Shown here in pieces: positions 2,929 to 24,005 of a stretch of DNA of 28,298 bases. A model generated the notes under the pieces. That model was not told the origin of the DNA, ran no database searches, and saw nothing but the letters and a program-made list of their open reading frames with translations. Origin of the DNA: a virus. Positions within the stretch are counted from its first letter, which is position 1. Each line of letters opens with the position of its first letter. The DNA lies in the IMG/VR virus record IMGVR_UViG_3300021959_000293, positions 1 through 28,298 of that record. One strand, given 5' to 3'. Made by a program: the position numbers and the translations under genes.

Positions 2929-4434
2929 ATGGGCATTTTAGACATATTCAAACGCACAAAGGCAAAACCACGTCGTCGGAATTATGCCGCTGCAAGTACC
3001 GGACGGTTATTTGCTGATTTTGCGGGATCGAACCGAAGCGCGGACAGTGAAGTTCGATGGGCATTGCGCCAAGTTCGCAATCGATCACGCGATTTGGAGC
3101 GAAACAACGAATATTTCCGCCGATATTTGCAGTTGTTGCGGGTGAATGTTGTCGGTGAAGGCGGTTTTAAACTGCAATTGAAGGGTCGAAACCCTGATGG
3201 ATCACTTGATCGTGCCGGAAATAACATCATCGAAGGCGCATGGAATGAATTTTCGCGCATGGGTGGACCGACTGTCGACGGCAAAATGTCGATGGTTGAT
3301 GCCTTAAATCACGTCATCACCGGCGTTGCGCGTGATGGTGAAGTGTTTGCGCTGATCGTAAAAGGTCAGTTTTTGCGTCATGGGATCGCATTGCAGTTCA
3401 TCGAACCTGATCGCATCGATGAAGAAAAGAACGAAAAGTTGCCGAACGGGAATGATGTCAGAATGGGCGTCGAACTGGACGCGACGACACGTCGTCCGGT
3501 CGCTTATCACATGCTGACATATCACACCGGTGATTATGACTACACGACATTTTCGAAGGCGGAAAAATACCGTCGAATTCCAGCCGACCAGATGATGCAC
3601 ATCTATCGTCCCGAACGTGCTGGTCAGACGCGCGGGATGCCATGGTCGTCGGCGGCCATCACGTCTTTGAAGATGCTTCACGGTTATCGTGAAGCCGAAT
3701 TGATTGCAGCAAGAACCGGCGCGGCGAAGATGGGTTTCTTCACTTCACCCGCTGGCGATGGGTTCACCGCCGACGGGTTTGATGATGCGGACAATTCTGT
3801 CCCGATCTATGACGCCGAAGCGGGAACCTTCCACCAGCTTCCCGCCGGTGTCGACTTTAAAGCGTTTGATCCCTCCCACCCTACAAGCGCATTTGCCGAC
3901 TTCGAAAAATCCATCCTTCGCGGGATAGCTGGTGGATTGGGTGTTTCCTACACATCTTTGGCGAACGATCTTGAAGGCACAAGTTATTCATCTATTCGCC
4001 AAGGCGCACTTGAAGAACGTGATTTTTATCGGACACTTCACAGGTTCGTGATCGATCACTTTGTCGATCCGCTTTTCCGCACATGGTTCGATCATGTCAT
4101 GGACAACAACTTCATCCCGATCAGCGGTCAAGGCAAGTTCGAAAAGTTCACCAATGGAATGATGTGGCGCGGCCGTGGTTTCCAGTGGGTCGATCCACTG
4201 AAGGAAATGAATGCGGCGGTTGTTGGTTTGCAGAACGGCATTCTTTCGCACACTGACATTGCGGCGAACTACGGTCGGGACGCCGAAGAAACGTTTGCGC
4301 AGATCGAACGCGATAAGGAAATGGCCGAACAATTTGGACTGAAAACCGCATATGAACCTTTCGGTGATAAGGTTCCCGTGCAACCTATGGTTCAGCCTGG
4401 GACTTCAGAAATTCAACCATTAGGTGAAGAATAA
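2929..4434 (+). CDS. Portal protein, lambda gpB family
   Basis: The portal forms the dodecameric ring at the unique capsid vertex through which DNA enters and leaves. The 501-residue protein begins with a basic segment (FKRTKAKPRRRNYAAA), followed by the family-typical RWALRQVRNRSRDLERNNEYFRR-type helix. Further family hallmarks are QFIEPDRID, IPADQMMHIYRPERAGQTRG and YREAELIAARTGAAKMGF. The last 60 residues are acidic and proline-rich. The start abuts the upstream gene and the TAA stop overlaps the next ATG (TAATG), so portal and capsid genes are probably translationally coupled. It was recognised confidently from the conserved blocks. Confidence 0.93.
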   Translation: MGILDIFKRTKAKPRRRNYAAASTGRLFADFAGSNRSADSEVRWALRQVRNRSRDLERNNEYFRRYLQLLRVNVVGEGGFKLQLKGRNPDGSLDRAGNNIIEGAWNEFSRMGGPTVDGKMSMVDALNHVITGVARDGEVFALIVKGQFLRHGIALQFIEPDRIDEEKNEKLPNGNDVRMGVELDATTRRPVAYHMLTYHTGDYDYTTFSKAEKYRRIPADQMMHIYRPERAGQTRGMPWSSAAITSLKMLHGYREAELIAARTGAAKMGFFTSPAGDGFTADGFDDADNSVPIYDAEAGTFHQLPAGVDFKAFDPSHPTSAFADFEKSILRGIAGGLGVSYTSLANDLEGTSYSSIRQGALEERDFYRTLHRFVIDHFVDPLFRTWFDHVMDNNFIPISGQGKFEKFTNGMMWRGRGFQWVDPLKEMNAAVVGLQNGILSHTDIAANYGRDAEETFAQIERDKEMAEQFGLKTAYEPFGDKVPVQPMVQPGTSEIQPLGEE

Positions 4435-6974
4435 TGCCGTATAAACCCACCAAATCGATGAAAGATGCGGCCGCGCGTGGCCTTCGATGGCGTGAAGAAT
4501 ACGGTCGTGGCGGGACTGAAGTCGGTGTTGCACGGGCGCGTGACATTGTGAATGGAAAGAATTTGAGTGAAAGCACCGTCAAGCGGATGTTTTCGTTCTT
4601 TAGTCGTCACAAGGTCAACAATGACAAACATTATTCGGCCAAGGAAAGTGACGGCGGACCAACAGCACATCGTATCGCTTGGGACTTGTGGGGCGGGTCG
4701 AACGGTTACACATGGTCGAAGAATATTGTCGAAAAATTAGACGCTGATGGCGGTGAAAGGTCGGAACCTATGCAAAACGATGAAAAATCTGATATTATGC
4801 CCGAAGAAAGGGTTGAAGACATGGAAAACGAAGTTCGCGCAGAACCAGACGAATTGAGCGTTGGCGATTGGGTCAGTTGGAATTCCAGCGGCGGCGAAGC
4901 ATACGGTCAAATTGAAAGCATCGAACGCGATGGCACAATTGACGTTCCAGATGCGGATGTCACCGTTTCGGGTGACGAAGATGATCCAGCGGCATTGATC
5001 GAAGTATATCGCGAAGGTGATGACGGATGGGAAGCATCCGGCGTCATGGTTGCGCACAAGTTTTCGACGCTGACCAAGGAAGCGCGTCGGGGATATAAAG
5101 ACAAAGACGAACGTCACATTGTCGATATTCAGGAAAACGAAAGCGAAATCATCATCACATACGCGAAGCATGATGAAGGTGAAGGTTCCGAAGAACGTTT
5201 CGACCGCGAAAAAATGGACTTTCGTGCAATGGCCGAAGTCGAAAGCGCGATTGACGAAGAAAAACGCACCGCAAACATGGTTGTTTCGACTGAAGAACCA
5301 GTTGATCGCAGTTTCGGCGCAGAAATATTGGATCACAGTCCGGAAAGCATCGATCTTTCGTTTGCTAAGTCTGGACGGATGCCATTCCTATTGGATCACG
5401 ACCCAAAACAACAAATTGGTGTCGTCGAAGATGTTCGCCTTGATGGTTTGTCGCGTAAGTTACGCGCAAAAGTCCGTTTCGGAAAAAACGGCTTGGCCAA
5501 AGAAGCGTTCGAAGATGTTGTTGATGGAATACGCAGCAACATCAGTGTTGGCTATCAAGTCAACAAAATGGACAAAGAAGGCGCGGATAGCTACCGTGTC
5601 AAATCTTGGTTCCCAATGGAAATCAGCTTAGTTTCAATACCTGCCGACAGGAAAGCCGGAATAGGTCGAAGCGCGTCTGAGAACCTTCAAACTCAACCTG
5701 CAATTCCTAAACAAGAAAGGAAAAATGAGATGTCAGAAGAAAATCAAATCGACATCGACGCGGTGAAGGCTGACGCAGCCCGTACCGCAGCGAAAGAAAC
5801 CGCTGAAATGTATCGCTTGGCGGCAAAGCACAATGTTCGCGATATTGCTGACCAATTCGTCGGCGAAGGTCGTTCATTGAACGAATTCCGTGGTGAACTA
5901 TTAAACCACATCGGAAACAAGCCAATCGACAACGATGCTGAAGCGGGTCTATCGAAGCAAGAAACACGTCGTTATTCTGTGATGAACGTGGTTCGCGCAC
6001 TAGCAAACCCAGCGGATCGCGCAGCGCAAAAAGCGGCGGCATTCGAACTTGAAGCGTCTTATGAAGCGGCACGCGCAGCCGGTCGCGAAGCACAAGGCGT
6101 CATGGTTCCAGCCGAAGTGTTGCGGAACTGGAAAGTTCGTGATCTGAACACATCAGACGACAGCGCAGTGATCGGGGAAGATTTCCGCGCGGGTGATTTC
6201 GTTGACGTTCTTCGCAACGCATCATCTGTCATGGCGGCTGGTGCTACAATGTTGAACGGTCTTTCCGGCGACGTAAAAATCCCGAAAAAGACAGCGGCGT
6301 CATCTGCCGGCTGGATCGCAACAGAAGGCGGCGCGTCATCTGAAAGCGAACCAACAGTTGGTCAGATCACAATGTCACCGAAGGTTGTCGGACATCACAC
6401 AGACATCACACGTCTAATGATGCAACAATCATCAATCGACGTTGAAGCAATGGTCCGCAACGACATTGCAGCGGGTATTGCGCAAGCAATCGACCTTGGT
6501 GCATTGGCGGGTTCTGGTTCTTCAGGTCAACCAACAGGTGTTTCAAACACATCAGGCATCAACGCACCGACATCTTTTGCGGCGGCGAACCCAACTTTCG
6601 CTGAAGTTGTTGCGATGGAAACAGCGGTTGCGGAAGACAACGCACTTGGCCAAAATATGGCCTACATCCTACCGGCATCTATGTATGGCGCACTTAAAAC
6701 CACTGCAAAAGACAGCGGTTCAGGGATGTTCGTTGTTGAACCAGATGGTCGCATCAACGGCTACAACGCAATCGTATCAAACCAAGTTACAGCGGGCGAC
6801 CTATACTTCGGCGCATTCGAAAACTTGTTGATCGGTATGTGGGGCGGCCTTGACCTAGTTGTTGACCCTTACACCAACAGCACAAGCGGCACAGTTCGCG
6901 TTGTGGGCTTACAGACAGTCGACGTGGCAGTTCGTCACGCGGTTGCGTTCGCTTACAACAACGACGGCGTATAA
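4434..6974 (+). CDS. Fused prohead protease / scaffold / major capsid protein
   Basis: This single 846-residue frame holds several head functions. Residues 1-100 (LRWREEYGRGGTEVGVARAR, RIAWDLWGG) form a domain I have seen in phage structural proteins but cannot name. Residues 142-214 (VGDWVSWNSSGGEAYGQIESI) look like a DUF2945/TUDOR-like domain. Residues 270-410 resemble an HK97-type serine protease with candidate triad His322 (LLDHDP), Ser371 (SNISVGYQV) and Glu396 (PMEISLVSIPAD). Residues 433-540 are helical and charged, like a scaffold or delta domain. The rest is an HK97-fold capsid protein (GWIATEGGASSESEPTVGQI, ADRAAQK). An in-frame ATG at 5730 with its own ribosome site could also yield a 414-residue scaffold-capsid product. 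Domain order is clear; processing sites are inferred. Confidence 0.88.
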   Translation: MPYKPTKSMKDAAARGLRWREEYGRGGTEVGVARARDIVNGKNLSESTVKRMFSFFSRHKVNNDKHYSAKESDGGPTAHRIAWDLWGGSNGYTWSKNIVEKLDADGGERSEPMQNDEKSDIMPEERVEDMENEVRAEPDELSVGDWVSWNSSGGEAYGQIESIERDGTIDVPDADVTVSGDEDDPAALIEVYREGDDGWEASGVMVAHKFSTLTKEARRGYKDKDERHIVDIQENESEIIITYAKHDEGEGSEERFDREKMDFRAMAEVESAIDEEKRTANMVVSTEEPVDRSFGAEILDHSPESIDLSFAKSGRMPFLLDHDPKQQIGVVEDVRLDGLSRKLRAKVRFGKNGLAKEAFEDVVDGIRSNISVGYQVNKMDKEGADSYRVKSWFPMEISLVSIPADRKAGIGRSASENLQTQPAIPKQERKNEMSEENQIDIDAVKADAARTAAKETAEMYRLAAKHNVRDIADQFVGEGRSLNEFRGELLNHIGNKPIDNDAEAGLSKQETRRYSVMNVVRALANPADRAAQKAAAFELEASYEAARAAGREAQGVMVPAEVLRNWKVRDLNTSDDSAVIGEDFRAGDFVDVLRNASSVMAAGATMLNGLSGDVKIPKKTAASSAGWIATEGGASSESEPTVGQITMSPKVVGHHTDITRLMMQQSSIDVEAMVRNDIAAGIAQAIDLGALAGSGSSGQPTGVSNTSGINAPTSFAAANPTFAEVVAMETAVAEDNALGQNMAYILPASMYGALKTTAKDSGSGMFVVEPDGRINGYNAIVSNQVTAGDLYFGAFENLLIGMWGGLDLVVDPYTNSTSGTVRVVGLQTVDVAVRHAVAFAYNNDGV
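5713..5732 (+). promoter_or_regulatory. Internal ribosome binding site and in-frame ATG for the capsid part
   Basis: An AAGAAAGG purine stretch at 5713-5720 lies 9 bases before an ATG at 5730 that is in frame with the protease-capsid gene (residue 433, MSEENQID). This is one of the best Shine-Dalgarno matches in the head region and falls exactly at the protease/scaffold boundary. It suggests separate, more abundant synthesis of scaffold-capsid protein, comparable to the in-frame Nu3 start inside lambda gene C. Confidence 0.6.
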
Positions 6975-15839: not shown

Positions 15840-16493
15840 ATGGCACTTGTCGTCGCTGATCGCGTAAAAGAAACGACTACAACAACCGGAACCGGAACAT
15901 ATACGTTGGCCGGTGCGGTTGACGGCTTTCAAACGTTTGGCGCAATAGGGGATGGAAACACGACCTATTATGCTTGTTCTGATGGGACTGACTACGAAGT
16001 CGGTATCGGAACATATACCGCAAGCGGGACCACGCTTGCGCGGACAACGATCATTGAAAGTTCGAATTCAGATGCGGCCGTCAATTGGTCGGCGGGTTCG
16101 AAGCAAGTCTTTTGCACCTTACCAGCGGACAAGGCGATTTTTGCCGATAGTTCCGGCATTGTTGCCAAGCCGATCAGACTAGAACAGCAATCATTAACCG
16201 CAAGCGGTGGCACATTGACCATCGACCTTTCGGCAGCCAACAACTTCAAGATCACTATGACGGCGGCCACCACCTTCGCGTTCACGAACAAAGACGCGGG
16301 ACGGGGCGGAAACATTGTGATCGTTGAAAATGCAACCGGCGGATACAGCTTCACATTGCCGGCGGAATGTAAAACACCGGTCAACGGGGCGTCGATTGTT
16401 CAGTCGACAGGTGCGAACGAAGTGAGTATTCTTTCATATTATGTGGTCGACAGTTCAAACATATTGGTCAACTATCTTGGTGACTTTGCGTAA
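15840..16493 (+). CDS. Virion structural protein with GTGTYTLAGA module
   Basis: This 217-residue beta-rich protein begins ALVVADRVKETTTTTGTGTY and TLAGAVDGFQTFGAIGDGNT and continues with YEVGIGTYTASGTTLARTTI, a module widespread in marine and alphaproteobacterial phages next to fibre genes. The second half (GTLTIDLSAANNFKITMTAA) ends with SSNILVNYLGDFA, a common fibre-side end. It may serve as an adaptor to which fibres attach. A ribosome site for the next gene (AAGGGGG) directly follows its stop. Confidence 0.75.
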   Translation: MALVVADRVKETTTTTGTGTYTLAGAVDGFQTFGAIGDGNTTYYACSDGTDYEVGIGTYTASGTTLARTTIIESSNSDAAVNWSAGSKQVFCTLPADKAIFADSSGIVAKPIRLEQQSLTASGGTLTIDLSAANNFKITMTAATTFAFTNKDAGRGGNIVIVENATGGYSFTLPAECKTPVNGASIVQSTGANEVSILSYYVVDSSNILVNYLGDFA

Positions 16494-16504: not shown

Positions 16505-17896
16505 ATGCAACAGATCGGGTTCCAAGAAAAGAAGGAATGGTCGACTTCGGTTTCGACCAATCGTTCAACCACAACGACGTTCAACACGTCACGCAGTACC
16601 ACAACCACGTTCAACACAAGCCGTTCAACGTCACAGTCGACGACAACGACTTATTCAACGTCGCATTCGACCACGACTACGTTTTCGACTTCACGGTCAA
16701 CAACCACGACGTACAACACAAGCCGTAGCACGACGACAACTTACAACACGTCGCGCAGCACGTCGCATTCGACGACGACAACTTACAACACGTCACGAAG
16801 TACGACCACGACTTACAACACGTCACGAAGTACGACGACGACTTACCAGACGTCACACACAACGTCGCATTCAACGACGACCACGTTTTCGACCAGCAAG
16901 TCGACAACCACGACTTTCAGCACGTCGCACAGTACGACCACGACGTTCGCGACTAGCCATTCGACGACCACGACGTTCACGACAACGTTCAACACGTCCC
17001 ACAGCACAACCACGACGTATTCGACCAGCAAGTCGACCACGACAACATTTAACACGTCGCATAGCACCACAACGACGTTCAACACGTCACACAGTACAAC
17101 CACGACCTTCACAACGACGTTCAACACGACCCGTTCGACTTCAACCAGCCGGTCGACGACAACAACGTTTAACACGTCTTTCCAGAATTACGTTGCGACC
17201 GATTATATGGCGGTCAATTATGTGGTGAACACTTCACAATCGACTTCACGTTCGACCACAACGACGTTCAACACAACAACAACGTTCAGCACGTCGCGCA
17301 GCACAAGCCGTTCGACGACAACGACATATTCAACAAGTAAGTCGACGACCACGACGTATTCAACCAGCCGGTCGACCACAACGACGTTCAACACGTCGCA
17401 CAGCACAACGACGACTTACAACACATCACGCAGCACAACACGAAGCACAACCACGACTTACAACACGTCACGATCAACGACGACGACTTACAACACGTCA
17501 CGGTCGACCACGACAACCTTCAACACGTCGCGCAGTACAACCACGACGTACACGACGTATTATAACACGTCGCATAGTACGACGACGACGTTCGCGACCA
17601 GCCATTCGACAACGACAACGTTCGCGACAAGTCACACGACAACCACGACGTACACGACGACGTTCAGCACGTCCCACAGCACGACCACGACGTTCAGCAC
17701 GTCCCACAGTACAACAACGACGTTCAACACGACGCGATCAACGACGACGACTTACAACACGTCACACAGTACGACCACGACGTTCACAACGACGTTCAGC
17801 ACGTCATCGACCTTCACGACGACGTTCAGCACGACGCGAAGCACAACGACAACCTTCAACACGTTAAGGACGACCAGTTTTTACAATCCAGCATAA
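16505..17896 (+). CDS. Ser/Thr decapeptide-repeat protein
   Basis: This 463-residue protein is almost wholly built from ten-residue units of the form [FY]-[NSA]-T-S-[RHK]-S-T-T-T-T. More than 30 STTTT blocks are present. Only the first 20 residues (MQQIGFQEKKEWSTSVSTNR), a short break near residues 226-247 (NYVATDYMAVNYVVN) and the end (RTTSFYNPA) differ. Each unit has one aromatic and one basic residue at fixed places; acidic residues are virtually absent. Thr codons vary freely between units, so the pattern appears selected at protein level. It has a strong ribosome site and lies between fibre-adaptor and putative glycosyltransferase genes. A fibrous beta-solenoid is plausible; function is unknown. 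Confidence 0.85.
   Translation: MQQIGFQEKKEWSTSVSTNRSTTTTFNTSRSTTTTFNTSRSTSQSTTTTYSTSHSTTTTFSTSRSTTTTYNTSRSTTTTYNTSRSTSHSTTTTYNTSRSTTTTYNTSRSTTTTYQTSHTTSHSTTTTFSTSKSTTTTFSTSHSTTTTFATSHSTTTTFTTTFNTSHSTTTTYSTSKSTTTTFNTSHSTTTTFNTSHSTTTTFTTTFNTTRSTSTSRSTTTTFNTSFQNYVATDYMAVNYVVNTSQSTSRSTTTTFNTTTTFSTSRSTSRSTTTTYSTSKSTTTTYSTSRSTTTTFNTSHSTTTTYNTSRSTTRSTTTTYNTSRSTTTTYNTSRSTTTTFNTSRSTTTTYTTYYNTSHSTTTTFATSHSTTTTFATSHTTTTTYTTTFSTSHSTTTTFSTSHSTTTTFNTTRSTTTTYNTSHSTTTTFTTTFSTSSTFTTTFSTTRSTTTTFNTLRTTSFYNPA
16551..17870 (+). repeat. Degenerate 30-bp coding repeats
   Basis: Tandem repeats of about 30 bases underlie the decapeptide protein. Copies differ mostly in third codon positions (ACA, ACG, ACC, ACT for Thr; TTC or TAC for the aromatic), and some units are shortened or fused (such as TTTTFTTTFNT). 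One non-repetitive break lies near 17180-17245. Confidence 0.85.
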
Positions 17897-17910: not shown

Positions 17911-18801
17911 GTGGAAATGTTTAACCGTAAAAGCATCAAGGAACGCATTGGCGACATCGAAAAGTCGTCGTCATTGCATCACCTTAAAGAATGCGAACGA
18001 TACTTCCTGAAACTAGCGAAGAAATACCGGATCGAACACGCATATGATGTCGTGGCGAACGAATTAACATATTTCAAAACGATCCAATACACTGAATGGG
18101 CGCATTGTTTTTCGATGAACCCATTGCAGCAAGAATTGCGGGTCGCGCAGATGGAACACGCTTATATTTCGTCAGACGTCGATAAATATGATTTTATGGG
18201 ATACTTACGCGATAAGGCGGTCAAAGGGGCGTCGAATAAATACAAGCACATCAAACAGCATGTCATCGAACCGCGTGATCATCTGATTGTTCCGGTGGGG
18301 TCGAATAAGTTGAAAGACACGATTTGTCTGAACAAGTTGTGTTATTTGCGGGACAAATACGACGGCAATGTCTGGTTCAAACCGCATCCGTTGACGACCC
18401 ATGCATTGGTCGGCGAACTTCGGGATATTCTTGGCGACATGGTTCTTGATCGTGATGTCGATATGTATTCGCTGATGATTAACGCGGAAACGATCCACAC
18501 AAGTCACATGTCGGAAAGTTGTGTTTATGCGGTCGCGCTGGGGAAGGAAATTGACCCAATCGATGTTTATAATCGGGTTCATGAAGGGTCGTTCTATCAC
18601 ATCAATCGCATGATGTTTTTGGCGTCCGATCCACATGCAACCATGCAATCTTGCTTGAATGGGGTCGAATGTGGTATCGTCAACCCAGAAATCCAAGATG
18701 ATTGGCAAAGCCGAATGGACCAATATTTCGAATATATTTTCGACCAGCGCGAAAAGCGCAAGGGTCACTATGTTTCGACCGTGAAGGGGTATGATTACTA
18801 A
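17911..18801 (+). CDS. Putative KpsS-like glycosyltransferase or polysaccharide-related protein
   Basis: This 296-residue protein resembles the C-terminal half of capsule synthesis (KpsC/KpsS-type, GT-B fold) proteins. VWFKPHP (K157-P160) matches the usual 'v.vKpHP' motif. HTSHMSESCVYAVALGKE (from about residue 198) matches the 'sS...eAl..GkpV' nucleotide-sugar site. A helical N-terminal part (IEKSSSLHHLKECERYFLKL) replaces the normal first domain, so it may be shortened. A GTG start at 17911 fits the AAGGGGA sequence 8 bases before it; an ATG at 17917 is an alternative. The stop overlaps the next ATG. It could modify fibres or host surface sugar; this is inferred. Confidence 0.5.
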   Translation: MEMFNRKSIKERIGDIEKSSSLHHLKECERYFLKLAKKYRIEHAYDVVANELTYFKTIQYTEWAHCFSMNPLQQELRVAQMEHAYISSDVDKYDFMGYLRDKAVKGASNKYKHIKQHVIEPRDHLIVPVGSNKLKDTICLNKLCYLRDKYDGNVWFKPHPLTTHALVGELRDILGDMVLDRDVDMYSLMINAETIHTSHMSESCVYAVALGKEIDPIDVYNRVHEGSFYHINRMMFLASDPHATMQSCLNGVECGIVNPEIQDDWQSRMDQYFEYIFDQREKRKGHYVSTVKGYDY

Positions 18802-20801: not shown

Positions 20802-21803
20802 ATGCCAAATATAGCGATAGGAAATAGTGCAAGTTGGAATGGCAACACAACCAATGCTGCAGGAATTGCTGCAACTCTTGGTTCAAATTATGCATCTGCT
20901 TCTTCTGGGGCACTGACTTTAAAAAGTGGTGTATCTATTAATAATTCTAATAGCAGTGATCCTTTTGTATCTCTAAAAGGAACAAGGCTAGAAATGACAG
21001 GTGGGGCAACTATTTCAAGTAATACGCAAGGCCCATATACCGTTGATAGTTCACAAAGTGGTTTGTTCGGTACAACGATCACAATAAATTCTGGAGTTTT
21101 TGTCTGGTCTGATGATGTGGATGATCCCGCTCTGCTTATTACCATTCCATGCACTATTGATAACTACGGTAAGATCATAGGAAAAGGCGGCATCGGTGCT
21201 AACAACGGCGGTGGTGCTGCAATTAATGGATACACAGGTGGTGGTCAAACAGGTGGAGATGCCATCAAGATTAACAGCGGCGTTTCAGGCGTAACCGTTA
21301 TCAACAGATCAGGCGCGTACATCGCTGGCGGTGGTGGCGGTGGTGGTTCATCATATGGTGGCGGTGGCGGTGGAGGCGCAGGCGGCGGCAACGGCGGCAA
21401 TGGCGGCCCTTATCGCACATATGCCGTTGGTGGTTCTGGCGGTGGTCTTAATGCATCAGGCGGTGCGGGTGGCACTGGCGGTGACGGTTATGGTGCTTCT
21501 GGCGGTGGTGCAGGCGGTGGTGGTGGCCGTCTATATTCCCCACCTGTTCATATCTACGCTGGCGCAGGCGGCGGTCGCATATTGCCTGGGTCAGGCGGTG
21601 CTGGCGGATACTACCCTTATGCGGGTTCTGCGGGTGGTGCTGGTGGCTCAGGTGGTAGCGCAGGAGGCTATGGTTCTTGTGGCGGTGGTGGCGGCTGGGG
21701 CGCATCTGGTGGCAATTCAGGTGGTTCGGGCGGCAAAGCCGTTAACGACAGCGGTGTTAGCTACACCTTATCTAACAGTGGGACTGTTTATGGTGGGACC
21801 TAA
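20802..21803 (+). CDS. Glycine-rich adhesin-like fibre protein
   Basis: Residues 1-170 of this 333-residue protein are a Ser/Asn/Gly-rich beta region (PNIAIGNSASWNGNTTNAAG, GTTITINSGVFVW, NYGKIIGKGG). Residues about 174-312 are dominated by runs of glycine broken by short Tyr/Ser/Arg-bearing loops (GGAGGYYPYAGSAGG, GGRLYSPPVHIYAGAGG). The end (SYTLSNSGTVYGGT) is again a beta strand. The glycine-rich part resembles T2/S16 gp38-type adhesins, whose polyglycine-II core presents variable loops to the receptor. It lies at the end of the fibre cassette. Receptor binding is inferred. Confidence 0.72.
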   Translation: MPNIAIGNSASWNGNTTNAAGIAATLGSNYASASSGALTLKSGVSINNSNSSDPFVSLKGTRLEMTGGATISSNTQGPYTVDSSQSGLFGTTITINSGVFVWSDDVDDPALLITIPCTIDNYGKIIGKGGIGANNGGGAAINGYTGGGQTGGDAIKINSGVSGVTVINRSGAYIAGGGGGGGSSYGGGGGGGAGGGNGGNGGPYRTYAVGGSGGGLNASGGAGGTGGDGYGASGGGAGGGGGRLYSPPVHIYAGAGGGRILPGSGGAGGYYPYAGSAGGAGGSGGSAGGYGSCGGGGGWGASGGNSGGSGGKAVNDSGVSYTLSNSGTVYGGT

Positions 21804-22853: not shown

Positions 22854-24005
22854 ATGTTTAGCTTGCATTCATTCGCGGCCGCAGCTTTTGCCGATGCTGG
22901 GGTTGAAAACTTCGAACTTGGTGCGAATGCAATCACCACTGGTTCACCGGATGTGGCATCGGTCACACTAAGTCACATTTACAATCTTGCCGGCGATGAC
23001 GTCACGACAGGATCACCGTCGCTGGGTCAACCTACAGTCGCACAAGAACATGATCTTGGCGGCAATGGGTTCGACACTGGTTCGGTCGATATTCCGACAA
23101 CAGGCATCAATCAAGAACACGCGCTTGTTGGGAACGGTGTCACCACTGGCACACCGGACATTGATACATTGCCGATGTCTGAAGAAGAAACGTTCAACAC
23201 ATCTAATTTGTTGACTTATTCAGCGATTGTTGATCAGGCGGCGTTGACGCAAGAACATGATCTTGATGCAAATGACGTGACAACCGGTGCGCCATCTGTA
23301 CCACAGACAAGCCTAATCGAAACCGTTCCTTTGTTTGCATCGGCTATCACAACAGGAACGCCGACAATTGGCACATCTGACATCGGACAGGAACACGGGT
23401 TTGCGGCCGATGCTATCACAACCGGTCAACCGGATTTGGACACTTGCACAATGTCCGAAGACGAAAGTTTCGCAACCGGCGAATTGGCGACGGGCGCAGC
23501 GGACGTCGGATCGGCCGCGATCACCCAAGAACATGACCTTTCCGGCGATGACATCACAACCGGTGCAGTCGTTATTGATCTGACGTCGATCACGCAAGAT
23601 CACGCCATCAGTGGCGACACAATAACCACAGGCACACCGTCGGTCGCATCCACATCAATCACCCAAGTTCACATTATAGTTGGCAGCGCGATCACAACAG
23701 GCGCACCGGCGAACGATAACGCCGCACTGACGCAAGAACACGATCTGAATGGTGACACACTGGAAACAGGCGTTCCGGTGCTGGATGGCGCGGAATTCGC
23801 CCAGATACACGTTTTATCAGGGGAAACAATAACCACCGGCGCACCATCGATCCCAATATTGATATTCGATCCAGCATTCGCGCGGACGGTAAATGTGGGC
23901 GACTTGTCACAGAACGTCGTTGTGGTCGGGGAACACAACTTTGCAACATTAACAACTTTTGGTATAAATAGTGTATCAATAGACGCATCCAATGAGGTCG
24001 CATAG
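22854..24005 (+). CDS. 23-residue repeat protein, probable virion fibre or tip
   Basis: After a 26-residue start (FSLHSFAAAAFADAGVENFE), this 383-residue protein has 13 consecutive 23-residue units and one partial unit. The pattern is [IVL]-x-T-G-x-P-x-[IVL]-x(5)-[IL]-x-Q-E-H-x-[LI]-x-G-x-x. There are no insertions between units. The last 40 residues (FDPAFARTVNVGDLSQNVVV, LTTFGINSVSIDASNEVA) form a different end. The repeats would suit stacked beta hairpins in an elongated fibre. It is followed directly by an Ig-like protein gene. The start ATG is the first after the divergent spacer; the ribosome site is weak. Confidence 0.8.
   Translation: MFSLHSFAAAAFADAGVENFELGANAITTGSPDVASVTLSHIYNLAGDDVTTGSPSLGQPTVAQEHDLGGNGFDTGSVDIPTTGINQEHALVGNGVTTGTPDIDTLPMSEEETFNTSNLLTYSAIVDQAALTQEHDLDANDVTTGAPSVPQTSLIETVPLFASAITTGTPTIGTSDIGQEHGFAADAITTGQPDLDTCTMSEDESFATGELATGAADVGSAAITQEHDLSGDDITTGAVVIDLTSITQDHAISGDTITTGTPSVASTSITQVHIIVGSAITTGAPANDNAALTQEHDLNGDTLETGVPVLDGAEFAQIHVLSGETITTGAPSIPILIFDPAFARTVNVGDLSQNVVVVGEHNFATLTTFGINSVSIDASNEVA
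22932..23828 (+). repeat. Thirteen tandem 69-bp coding repeats
   Basis: The repeats have an exact 69-base period for 13 units (897 bases) and continue partly after 23829. A higher order is also visible: units 4-5 (PDIDTLPMSEEETFN) resemble units 8-9 (PDLDTCTMSEDESFA), four units apart. This suggests block duplication of 276 bases on top of single-unit growth. Confidence 0.8.
23941..23968 (+). promoter_or_regulatory. Candidate sigma-70 promoter before the lysis region
   Basis: TTGCAA (23941-23946) and TATAAA (23963-23968) are separated by 16 bases, and a TGG precedes the -10 box in the extended form. It falls in the last codons of the repeat protein and would drive the Ig-like and lysis genes. 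It is predicted by eye only. Confidence 0.4.

What the first reader, a model, noticed from the sequence alone, without database searches (positions are those of the whole stretch)
16505..17896. 463-residue protein of Ser/Thr decapeptides with fixed aromatic and basic residues
More than 30 units of [FY]-[NSA]-T-S-[RHK]-S-T-T-T-T make up nearly the whole protein. Thr codons vary, so selection appears to hold the amino-acid pattern. The regular aromatic plus positive charge could form a stacked, charged ladder on one face of a solenoid, able to bind anionic polysaccharide or DNA. The R/H/K changes between units look like a tunable position.
Basis: partly seen in the sequence, partly recalled or inferred. 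Interest (0 to 1): 0.75.

Follow-up and report, generated by a model that had tools for sequence, protein, structure and literature searches.

The report
Phage threonine-repeat fibre with sugar-transferase partner
A marine bacterial virus carries a protein built almost wholly of threonine-rich repeats, and in about a hundred related viral loci this gene sits beside a gene for a CMP-sugar-transferase-like enzyme, so the pair is probably a previously undescribed system for making a sugar-coated virus fibre.

Summary
The ORF (16505-17896, 463 aa, 68% Ser+Thr) is real and under purifying selection (dN/dS about 0.07-0.16). Strict decapeptides number 27, not over 30. The true unit is smaller: a tetrad [FYW/RKH]-x-T-x plus dyad spacers T-x. 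Across 66 relatives aromatic and basic residues keep even spacing (88% and 93%, against 45-47% in control proteins). All 23 testable loci found with the repeat have this partner, and all 77 testable loci found with the partner have the repeat. Cultured Caulobacter and Vibrio phages (including KVP40) carry the pair. The partner's predicted fold is nearest to CMP-Kdo transferases KpsC, WbbB and KrkA, and it has the (K/R)xHP CMP-sugar motif in 52 of 52 sequences. Neighbours often include methyltransferases and glycosyltransferases; one contig has a KdsA/KdsB sugar-synthesis island between the pair and the tail-sheath gene. Best reading: a tail-fibre-associated surface protein, O-glycosylated on its fixed threonines by its own transferase from a CMP-ulosonate such as CMP-Kdo. 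Glycosylation is inferred, not shown. AlphaFold gives no confident fold for the repeat (pLDDT 40), so the solenoid is unsupported.

The parts
15840..16493 (+). Upstream tail-fibre gene, 217 aa, whose C-terminal domain ends ...ILVNYLGDFA; first gene of the recurrent triad
   Evidence: PHROG tail-fibre hits (weak, best E 0.00066). In 27 of 34 testable loci (32 of 34 by eye) the gene before the repeat gene ends with the same [NS]Y[VIL]G[DN]F motif.
16505..17896 (+). Thr/Ser/aromatic/basic repeat protein, 463 aa
   Evidence: homologs
16505..16564 (+). Conserved N-terminal cap, M-x2-3-GF-x5-[WF]-x-T (MQQIGFQEKKEWSTSVSTNR)
   Evidence: same start in L003, L004, L005, L006, L007, L009, L016, L022, L027, L039
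17180..17227 (+). Conserved non-repeat insert FQNYVATDYMAVNYVV (residues 226-241)
   Evidence: kept in L004, L013, L019, L020, L026, L027, L031, L033, L039, L042
17858..17893 (+). Conserved C-terminal end NTLRTTSFYNPA
   Evidence...TSFY ends in L004, L006, L007, L014, L027, L033, L035, L039, L042
17911..18801 (+). Partner: GT-B, CMP-sugar-transferase-like protein, 296 aa (phrog_26179, function unknown)
   Evidence: AlphaFold2 pLDDT 84.9; nearest solved folds KpsC, WbbB, KrkA, Z about 9-10; (K/R)xHP motif in 52 of 52
18379..18390 (+). KPHP = (K/R)xHP motif, residues 157-160 of the partner
   Evidence: sequence; K, H and second P in 52 of 52 dereplicated partners; motif role from PMC12887879
22280..22783 (-). 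Possible accessory gene: SAM methyltransferase-like, 167 aa
   Evidence: PF13489 E 1.1e-5, just under its curated cut-off; methyltransferases recur beside the pair elsewhere. Its link to the pair in this window is inference.

Best explanation
The repeat protein and the next gene form a two-gene system. The repeat protein is a tail-fibre-associated surface protein: an extended chain of [aromatic or basic]-x-Thr-x tetrads that displays fixed threonines at regular, even spacing. The partner is a cytoplasmic GT-B transferase that takes a CMP-activated ulosonic sugar, most likely CMP-Kdo from the Gram-negative host or in some phages from phage-encoded kds genes, and O-glycosylates the repeat on threonine before the protein is built into the virion. 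Neighbouring methyltransferases, glycosyltransferases and sugar-synthesis genes then elaborate the glycan. The product would be a stiff, sugar-coated fibre or shield, with the aromatic/basic positions free to change. Shown here: the repeat pattern and its register, purifying selection, near-obligate linkage, the partner's predicted fold and CMP-sugar motif, the glycan-gene neighbourhood and the fibre-gene neighbour. Inferred: that the repeat is the acceptor, that threonine is the linkage residue, that the donor is CMP-Kdo, and that the protein is in the virion.
For: Linkage: 23 of 23 testable repeat-found loci carry the partner and 77 of 77 testable partner-found loci carry the repeat; only 1 of 174 other ORFs of at least 150 aa nearby is Ser/Thr-rich. 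Spread: Autographiviridae podophages of Caulobacter, phage Cr30, Straboviridae such as KVP40 and QD01, and the window's lineage. The nearest relatives by terminase, Roseobacter phages CRP-811/821/406/831, lack both genes. Enzyme: the top 13 aligned folds are all CMP-Kdo transferases, Z 8.7-10.1 over 209-225 residues, and a polysialyltransferase follows at Z 8.4; the (K/R)xHP motif shared by sialyltransferases and Kdo transferases (PMC12887879) is in 52 of 52, as are E202 and D46. Context: methyltransferases, GT29-like, GT8-like and GT4-type transferases and a cupin beside the pair; on L149 the order is repeat, partner, DUF4422, aminotransferase, RmlD-like, two GT92-like, radical SAM, KdsA, KdsB-methyltransferase fusion, tail sheath; KdsB is also on two other pair-bearing records and a KdsD-like protein on one. 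Threonine is the fixed residue: 217 of 218 kept from window to L031; Thr at -2/+2 of basic residues 84/88% and of aromatics 84/81% in 66 relatives.
Against: No biochemical or mass data. The partner matches no Pfam family at cut-off, finds no relative among solved structures by sequence, and lacks the QxxxD nucleophile of retaining Kdo transferases, having GSN there. KdsB is on only 3 of 30 tested pair-bearing records, NeuB on none, and most viral KdsB loci lack the pair within 10 kb. Stenotrophomonas phage DLP_6 has the partner but no repeat was found beside it. Many loci are close relatives, so the linkage counts are not independent.
Confidence: 0.6

Rival explanations
1. One reading: an unglycosylated beta-solenoid with a ladder of aromatic and basic residues that binds anionic polysaccharide or DNA. 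The partner gene is then incidental or acts elsewhere.
For: Aromatic and basic residues share one register; the protein is strongly basic with 3 acidic residues; weak strand prediction.
Against: No confident fold (pLDDT 40). The basic position can become Q, N or T while Thr is fixed, the reverse of what a charge ladder predicts. It leaves the linkage to a transferase unexplained.
Confidence: 0.12
2. The partner glycosylates a host surface glycan (receptor masking or superinfection exclusion), not the repeat; the two travel together because both deal with the same receptor.
For: Kdo transferases normally act on host envelope glycans; the pair sits after tail-fibre genes, where receptor functions cluster.
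Against: The linkage survives across very different phages and hosts, which suggests a direct enzyme-substrate relation; the accessory genes sit in the structural region, up to the tail sheath in L149.
Confidence: 0.13
3. The partner is a catalytically dead, GT-derived assembly factor that folds or polymerises the repeat chains into a fibre.
For: Fibre chaperones often sit next to fibre genes (own knowledge); the QxxxD nucleophile of Kdo transferases is absent.
Against: The CMP-sugar site signature, KPHP and the downstream Glu, is invariant, and glycan-synthesis genes accompany the pair.
Confidence: 0.07
4. The repeat is a multi-chain extended beta needle whose alternating Thr/aromatic/basic face packs inside, as in some phage fibre tips; any glycans are secondary. 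Parts of this can be true together with the best explanation.
For: Strict even spacing, 88-93% against 45-47% in controls, is what alternating in/out beta strands need; a monomer prediction would miss a multi-chain fold.
Against: No structural match; aromatic-aromatic parity is lost in the Caulobacter members; buried Thr would not be sugar acceptors.
Confidence: 0.2

Closest known systems
AIDA-I/Aah and TibA/TibC autotransporter adhesins with adjacent heptosyltransferase (own knowledge)
   Same: Repetitive surface protein encoded next to its own O-glycosyltransferase, with a sugar donor borrowed from LPS core synthesis
   Different: Bacterial autotransporters with about 19-residue repeats and ADP-heptose; here a phage protein with 4-residue tetrads and a CMP-sugar-type transferase; no sequence relation tested
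Serine-rich repeat glycoproteins of Gram-positive bacteria with dedicated GtfA/GtfB (own knowledge)
   Same: Very long Ser/Thr repeats with a cognate glycosyltransferase encoded beside them
   Different: Cell-wall adhesins with accessory secretion and UDP-GlcNAc type transferases; the cultured hosts here are all Gram-negative
CMP-Kdo transferases KpsC (GT107), WbbB (GT99) and KrkA (GT140)
   Same: Closest folds to the partner (Z about 9-10) and shared (K/R)xHP CMP-binding motif
   Different: The partner is shorter (296 aa), lacks QxxxD, and is only about 10-14% identical; the known enzymes act on glycolipids or polysaccharides
Bacterial polysialyltransferase (5wc6, 5wcn)
   Same: GT-B, CMP-sugar, HP motif; C-terminal domain superposes (Z 8.4, about 3 A); one alignment member hits PF07388 at E 0.025
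   Different: Only about 125 residues align; no family-level hit
Mycobacteriophage virion glycosylation (own knowledge; no paper on it was read here)
   Same: Phage-encoded transferase modifying virion proteins
   Different: Different phages, hosts and enzymes; no dedicated threonine-repeat acceptor

Membership tests
Retaining beta-Kdo transferases (GT99/GT107/GT140) | GT-B fold like KpsC/WbbB/KrkA | tested here: met
   Top 13 VIA-align rows, Z 8.7-10.1 over 209-225 residues. Z near 8 can be common, so this is moderate support.
Retaining beta-Kdo transferases (GT99/GT107/GT140) | (K/R)xHP CMP-binding motif | tested here: met
   KPHP; K, H and second P in 52 of 52; motif per PMC12887879
Retaining beta-Kdo transferases (GT99/GT107/GT140) | QxxxD motif with the nucleophilic Asp | tested here: not met
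   The strand before the HP motif carries G-[ST]-N in 52 of 52, not QxxxD, so it is not filed as a member. Position judged by sequence order, not by superposed coordinates.
Retaining beta-Kdo transferases (GT99/GT107/GT140) | Transfers Kdo from CMP-Kdo | not testable with these tools
   Needs an assay; kdsA/kdsB/kdsD-like genes on some pair-bearing phages are indirect support
Capsule_synth PF05159 | Pfam match above cut-off | tested here: not met
   No match in the window record or in the scans of partner sequences
Polysialyltransferase PF07388 | Pfam match above cut-off | tested here: not met
   Best E 0.025 in 1 of 14 members
Tail-fibre protein (repeat gene) | Gene position in the tail-fibre block | tested here: met
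   After collar/fibre genes in the window and after fibre genes in related loci
Tail-fibre protein (repeat gene) | Present in the virion | not testable with these tools
   No virion proteomics of a cassette phage was identified in the literature search
Beta-solenoid protein (repeat gene) | Predicted or solved solenoid fold | tested here: inconclusive
   pLDDT 40, pTM 0.32; a monomer prediction of a low-complexity repeat cannot exclude it

The most novel reading that the evidence does not exclude
A phage-borne, self-contained protein O-glycosylation system: a threonine tetrad-repeat acceptor with its own CMP-ulosonate transferase puts Kdo (or a related acidic sugar) directly on threonine, and the fixed basic residues two positions away pair with the sugar carboxylates, so the virus wears a charge-matched glycan sheath made of the same sugar as its host's LPS core, possibly as mimicry or shielding. 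Direct Kdo-threonine linkage would be new as far as I know.
Probability: 0.3. Interest if true: 0.88.

Novelty: new variant of a known kind. Interest (0 to 1): 0.72.

Why it matters
Several hundred viral contigs encode the partner (394 hits), and every testable one of the 80 examined carries the repeat, yet neither protein has a functional annotation and the repeat gene is sometimes missed altogether: it is unannotated in Vibrio phages F86, D479 and D484. If the pair works as proposed, it is a portable glycosylation module for phage fibres, found in several unrelated kinds of tailed phage and almost absent from bacterial genomes (1 locus from 84,980 species by a motif-limited scan). It would bear on host recognition, shielding of virions and the use of host LPS precursors, and it is testable at once in harmless laboratory pairs.

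Tried and rejected
Pfam and PHROGs on the repeat: nothing (except KVP40.0254 = phrog_30374, unknown function). tblastn of the repeat against phages: no match, most likely because the low-complexity filter masks it. AlphaFold2 of the repeat with 7 relatives: pLDDT 40, and its Foldseek search gave only chance-level matches. Solved-structure sequence search with the partner alignment: nothing. Capsule_synth relatives fetched from the class of the one MAG with the partner were weak and were not used. KdsB as a specific marker of the pair was rejected: 107 viral contigs encode a KdsB relative, and of the KdsB loci examined only one contig had the pair within the flanks; cyanophage S-SCSM2R and two other KdsB-bearing records gave no partner match. 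NeuB: none of 30 records. Literature searches for the repeat motif and for a phage threonine-repeat/Kdo link found nothing in the open-access library. Apparent exceptions to linkage were resolved: L049 was a wrong-frame choice (same contig as L031), L073 has the repeat four genes upstream, and L066, L067 and L123 end at the contig edge.

Full report
OBSERVATION. The ORF 16505-17896 is open and encodes 463 aa. It holds 218 Thr and 97 Ser. Lag-10 identity is 0.59 against 0.28 in shuffles, maximum 0.33. Strict decapeptides number 27. Third codon positions differ far more between copies than first and second (37% against 65% identical), and dN/dS against L042 and L031 is 0.073 and 0.161, so the protein pattern is selected. 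These dN/dS values rest on pairwise alignment of repeats, which may favour matching copies. Relative to L042 the window lacks two blocks of exactly 44 residues.

UNIT AND REGISTER. In 66 dereplicated relatives aromatic-aromatic spacings are even in 3992 of 4549 cases (88%), basic-basic in 93% and aromatic-basic in 91%; in ordinary proteins of the same loci the even fraction is 45% and 47%. Preferred spacings are 10, 4, 14, 6, 8 and 18. Thr sits two residues either side of aromatics (84/81%) and of basic residues (84/88%). The simplest description is tetrads [FYW or RKH]-x-T-x joined by dyads T-x; 10 = 4+4+2, 14 = 4+4+4+2. Vibrio phages KVP40, QD01 and F86 use mostly tetrads. The Caulobacter members are looser: Lullwater, DCM and Cr30 lose aromatic parity.

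WHAT VARIES. Window and L031 have partner proteins 99% identical, yet their repeats differ in a directed way: Thr 217 of 218 and Phe 30 of 30 kept, His 15 of 16 replaced by R/Q/N/K, Tyr 13 of 21 replaced by Phe. The threonines are the constant; the aromatic and basic positions are adjustable.

THE PARTNER. The next gene, 17911-18801, has phrog_26179, function unknown, as its only strong family match. Starting from the repeat, 29 viral loci were found; a partner HMM finds the partner in 23, and in the other 6 the stretch ends first. Starting from the partner, 394 viral hits were found and the best 80 kept: 75 have the repeat upstream, L049 and L073 do on inspection, and 3 end at the contig edge. 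Only 1 of 174 other ORFs of at least 150 aa nearby is Ser/Thr-rich. These loci include near-identical contigs, so the effective sample is smaller; 100 partner sequences dereplicate to 52. Separate lineages include the window's group, Autographiviridae (Lullwater, DCM, Quill), Cr30, and Straboviridae KVP40 and QD01. In Vibrio F86, D479 and D484 the repeat ORF is present but not annotated. Roseobacter phages CRP-811, -821, -406 and -831, nearest by terminase (76-77%), lack both. One locus from 84,980 bacterial and archaeal species has the partner, in a MAG, by a motif-limited scan.

WHAT THE PARTNER IS. AlphaFold2 gives pLDDT 84.9. The best aligned folds are KpsC, WbbB and KrkA, all CMP-Kdo transferases (Z 10.1 down to 8.7), with a polysialyltransferase a little lower (Z 8.4). 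Invariant in 52 of 52: G14, D46, K110, Y111, G130, N132, K157, H159, P160, T162, E202, G255. K157-P160 is the (K/R)xHP motif that binds CMP in sialyltransferases and Kdo transferases (PMC12887879). The QxxxD nucleophile of retaining Kdo transferases (PMC12887879, PMC10148158) is not seen; GSN stands in that strand. An inverting, sialyltransferase-like mechanism with D46 as a possible base is my inference. It works like a CMP-ulosonate transferase; it is not filed as a GT99, GT107 or GT140 member.

CONTEXT. In 27 of 34 testable loci (32 by eye) the gene before the repeat is a fibre gene ending in the same motif as window 15840-16493. Genes between or after the pair include SAM methyltransferases, GT29-like, GT8-like and GT4-type transferases and a cupin. 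On contig IMGVR_UViG_3300013111_000114 (L149) the order is repeat, partner, DUF4422, DegT aminotransferase, RmlD-like, two GT92-like enzymes with a SPASM protein between, radical SAM, KdsA, KdsB fused to a methyltransferase, tail sheath. KdsB is on 3 of 30 pair-bearing records and a KdsD-like protein on one. But most viral KdsB loci lack the pair within 10 kb, so this is support, not proof, for CMP-Kdo.

FOLD OF THE REPEAT. AlphaFold2 on the window protein with 7 relatives gives pLDDT 40 and pTM 0.32. This neither supports a solenoid nor excludes an ordered oligomer or a glycosylated extended chain.

CONCLUSION. The best-supported explanation is a fibre-associated protein O-glycosylated by its neighbouring CMP-sugar transferase. 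Steps shown: pattern, selection, linkage, partner fold and motif, neighbourhood. Steps inferred: acceptor identity, linkage residue, donor, virion location. The principle of a repeat protein with its own adjacent glycosyltransferase is known in bacteria (AIDA-I/Aah, serine-rich repeat proteins; own knowledge); this phage pair appears undescribed, with the limit that only open-access papers could be searched.

Noticed in passing
L005:3796-7428, L016:1539-4985, L018, L022, L094: The first of two tandem repeat proteins ends in a Hint/intein-like domain (ECIVEGTLVHI ... ILTHN); Pfam hits are below cut-off.
   Followed up: partly
L149:9055-10332: KdsB (CMP-Kdo synthetase) fused to a SAM methyltransferase domain in a phage, next to KdsA.
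   Followed up: partly
L136, L137, L138 (Vibrio phages F86, D479, D484): Repeat ORFs upstream of the partner are not annotated in the public records.
   Followed up: yes
window 16505-17896 against L031:4331-5983: Wholesale His to R/Q/N/K and Tyr to Phe change between phages with 99% identical partners; cause unknown.
   Followed up: partly
L127:1821-2699 (Stenotrophomonas phage DLP_6): Partner homolog with no Ser/Thr repeat beside it; the upstream ORF ends in what looks by eye like a Hint-type sequence.
   Followed up: no
window 22854-24005: 383-aa protein of imperfect repeats of the type ITTGxPxI...QEHDL, no family match above cut-off.
   Followed up: no
window 20802-21803: 333-aa protein with a long glycine-rich stretch, no clear family match.
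   Followed up: no
window 4434-6974: 846-aa ORF that looks like a protease-capsid fusion; the gene in the matching position is annotated major capsid protein in the CRP phages.
   Followed up: no
L007:3403-5790, L003:2194-7350, L008:1380-2084: Different folded-looking segments are inserted in or attached to the repeat, as if it were a stalk for other domains; no Pfam match.
   Followed up: partly
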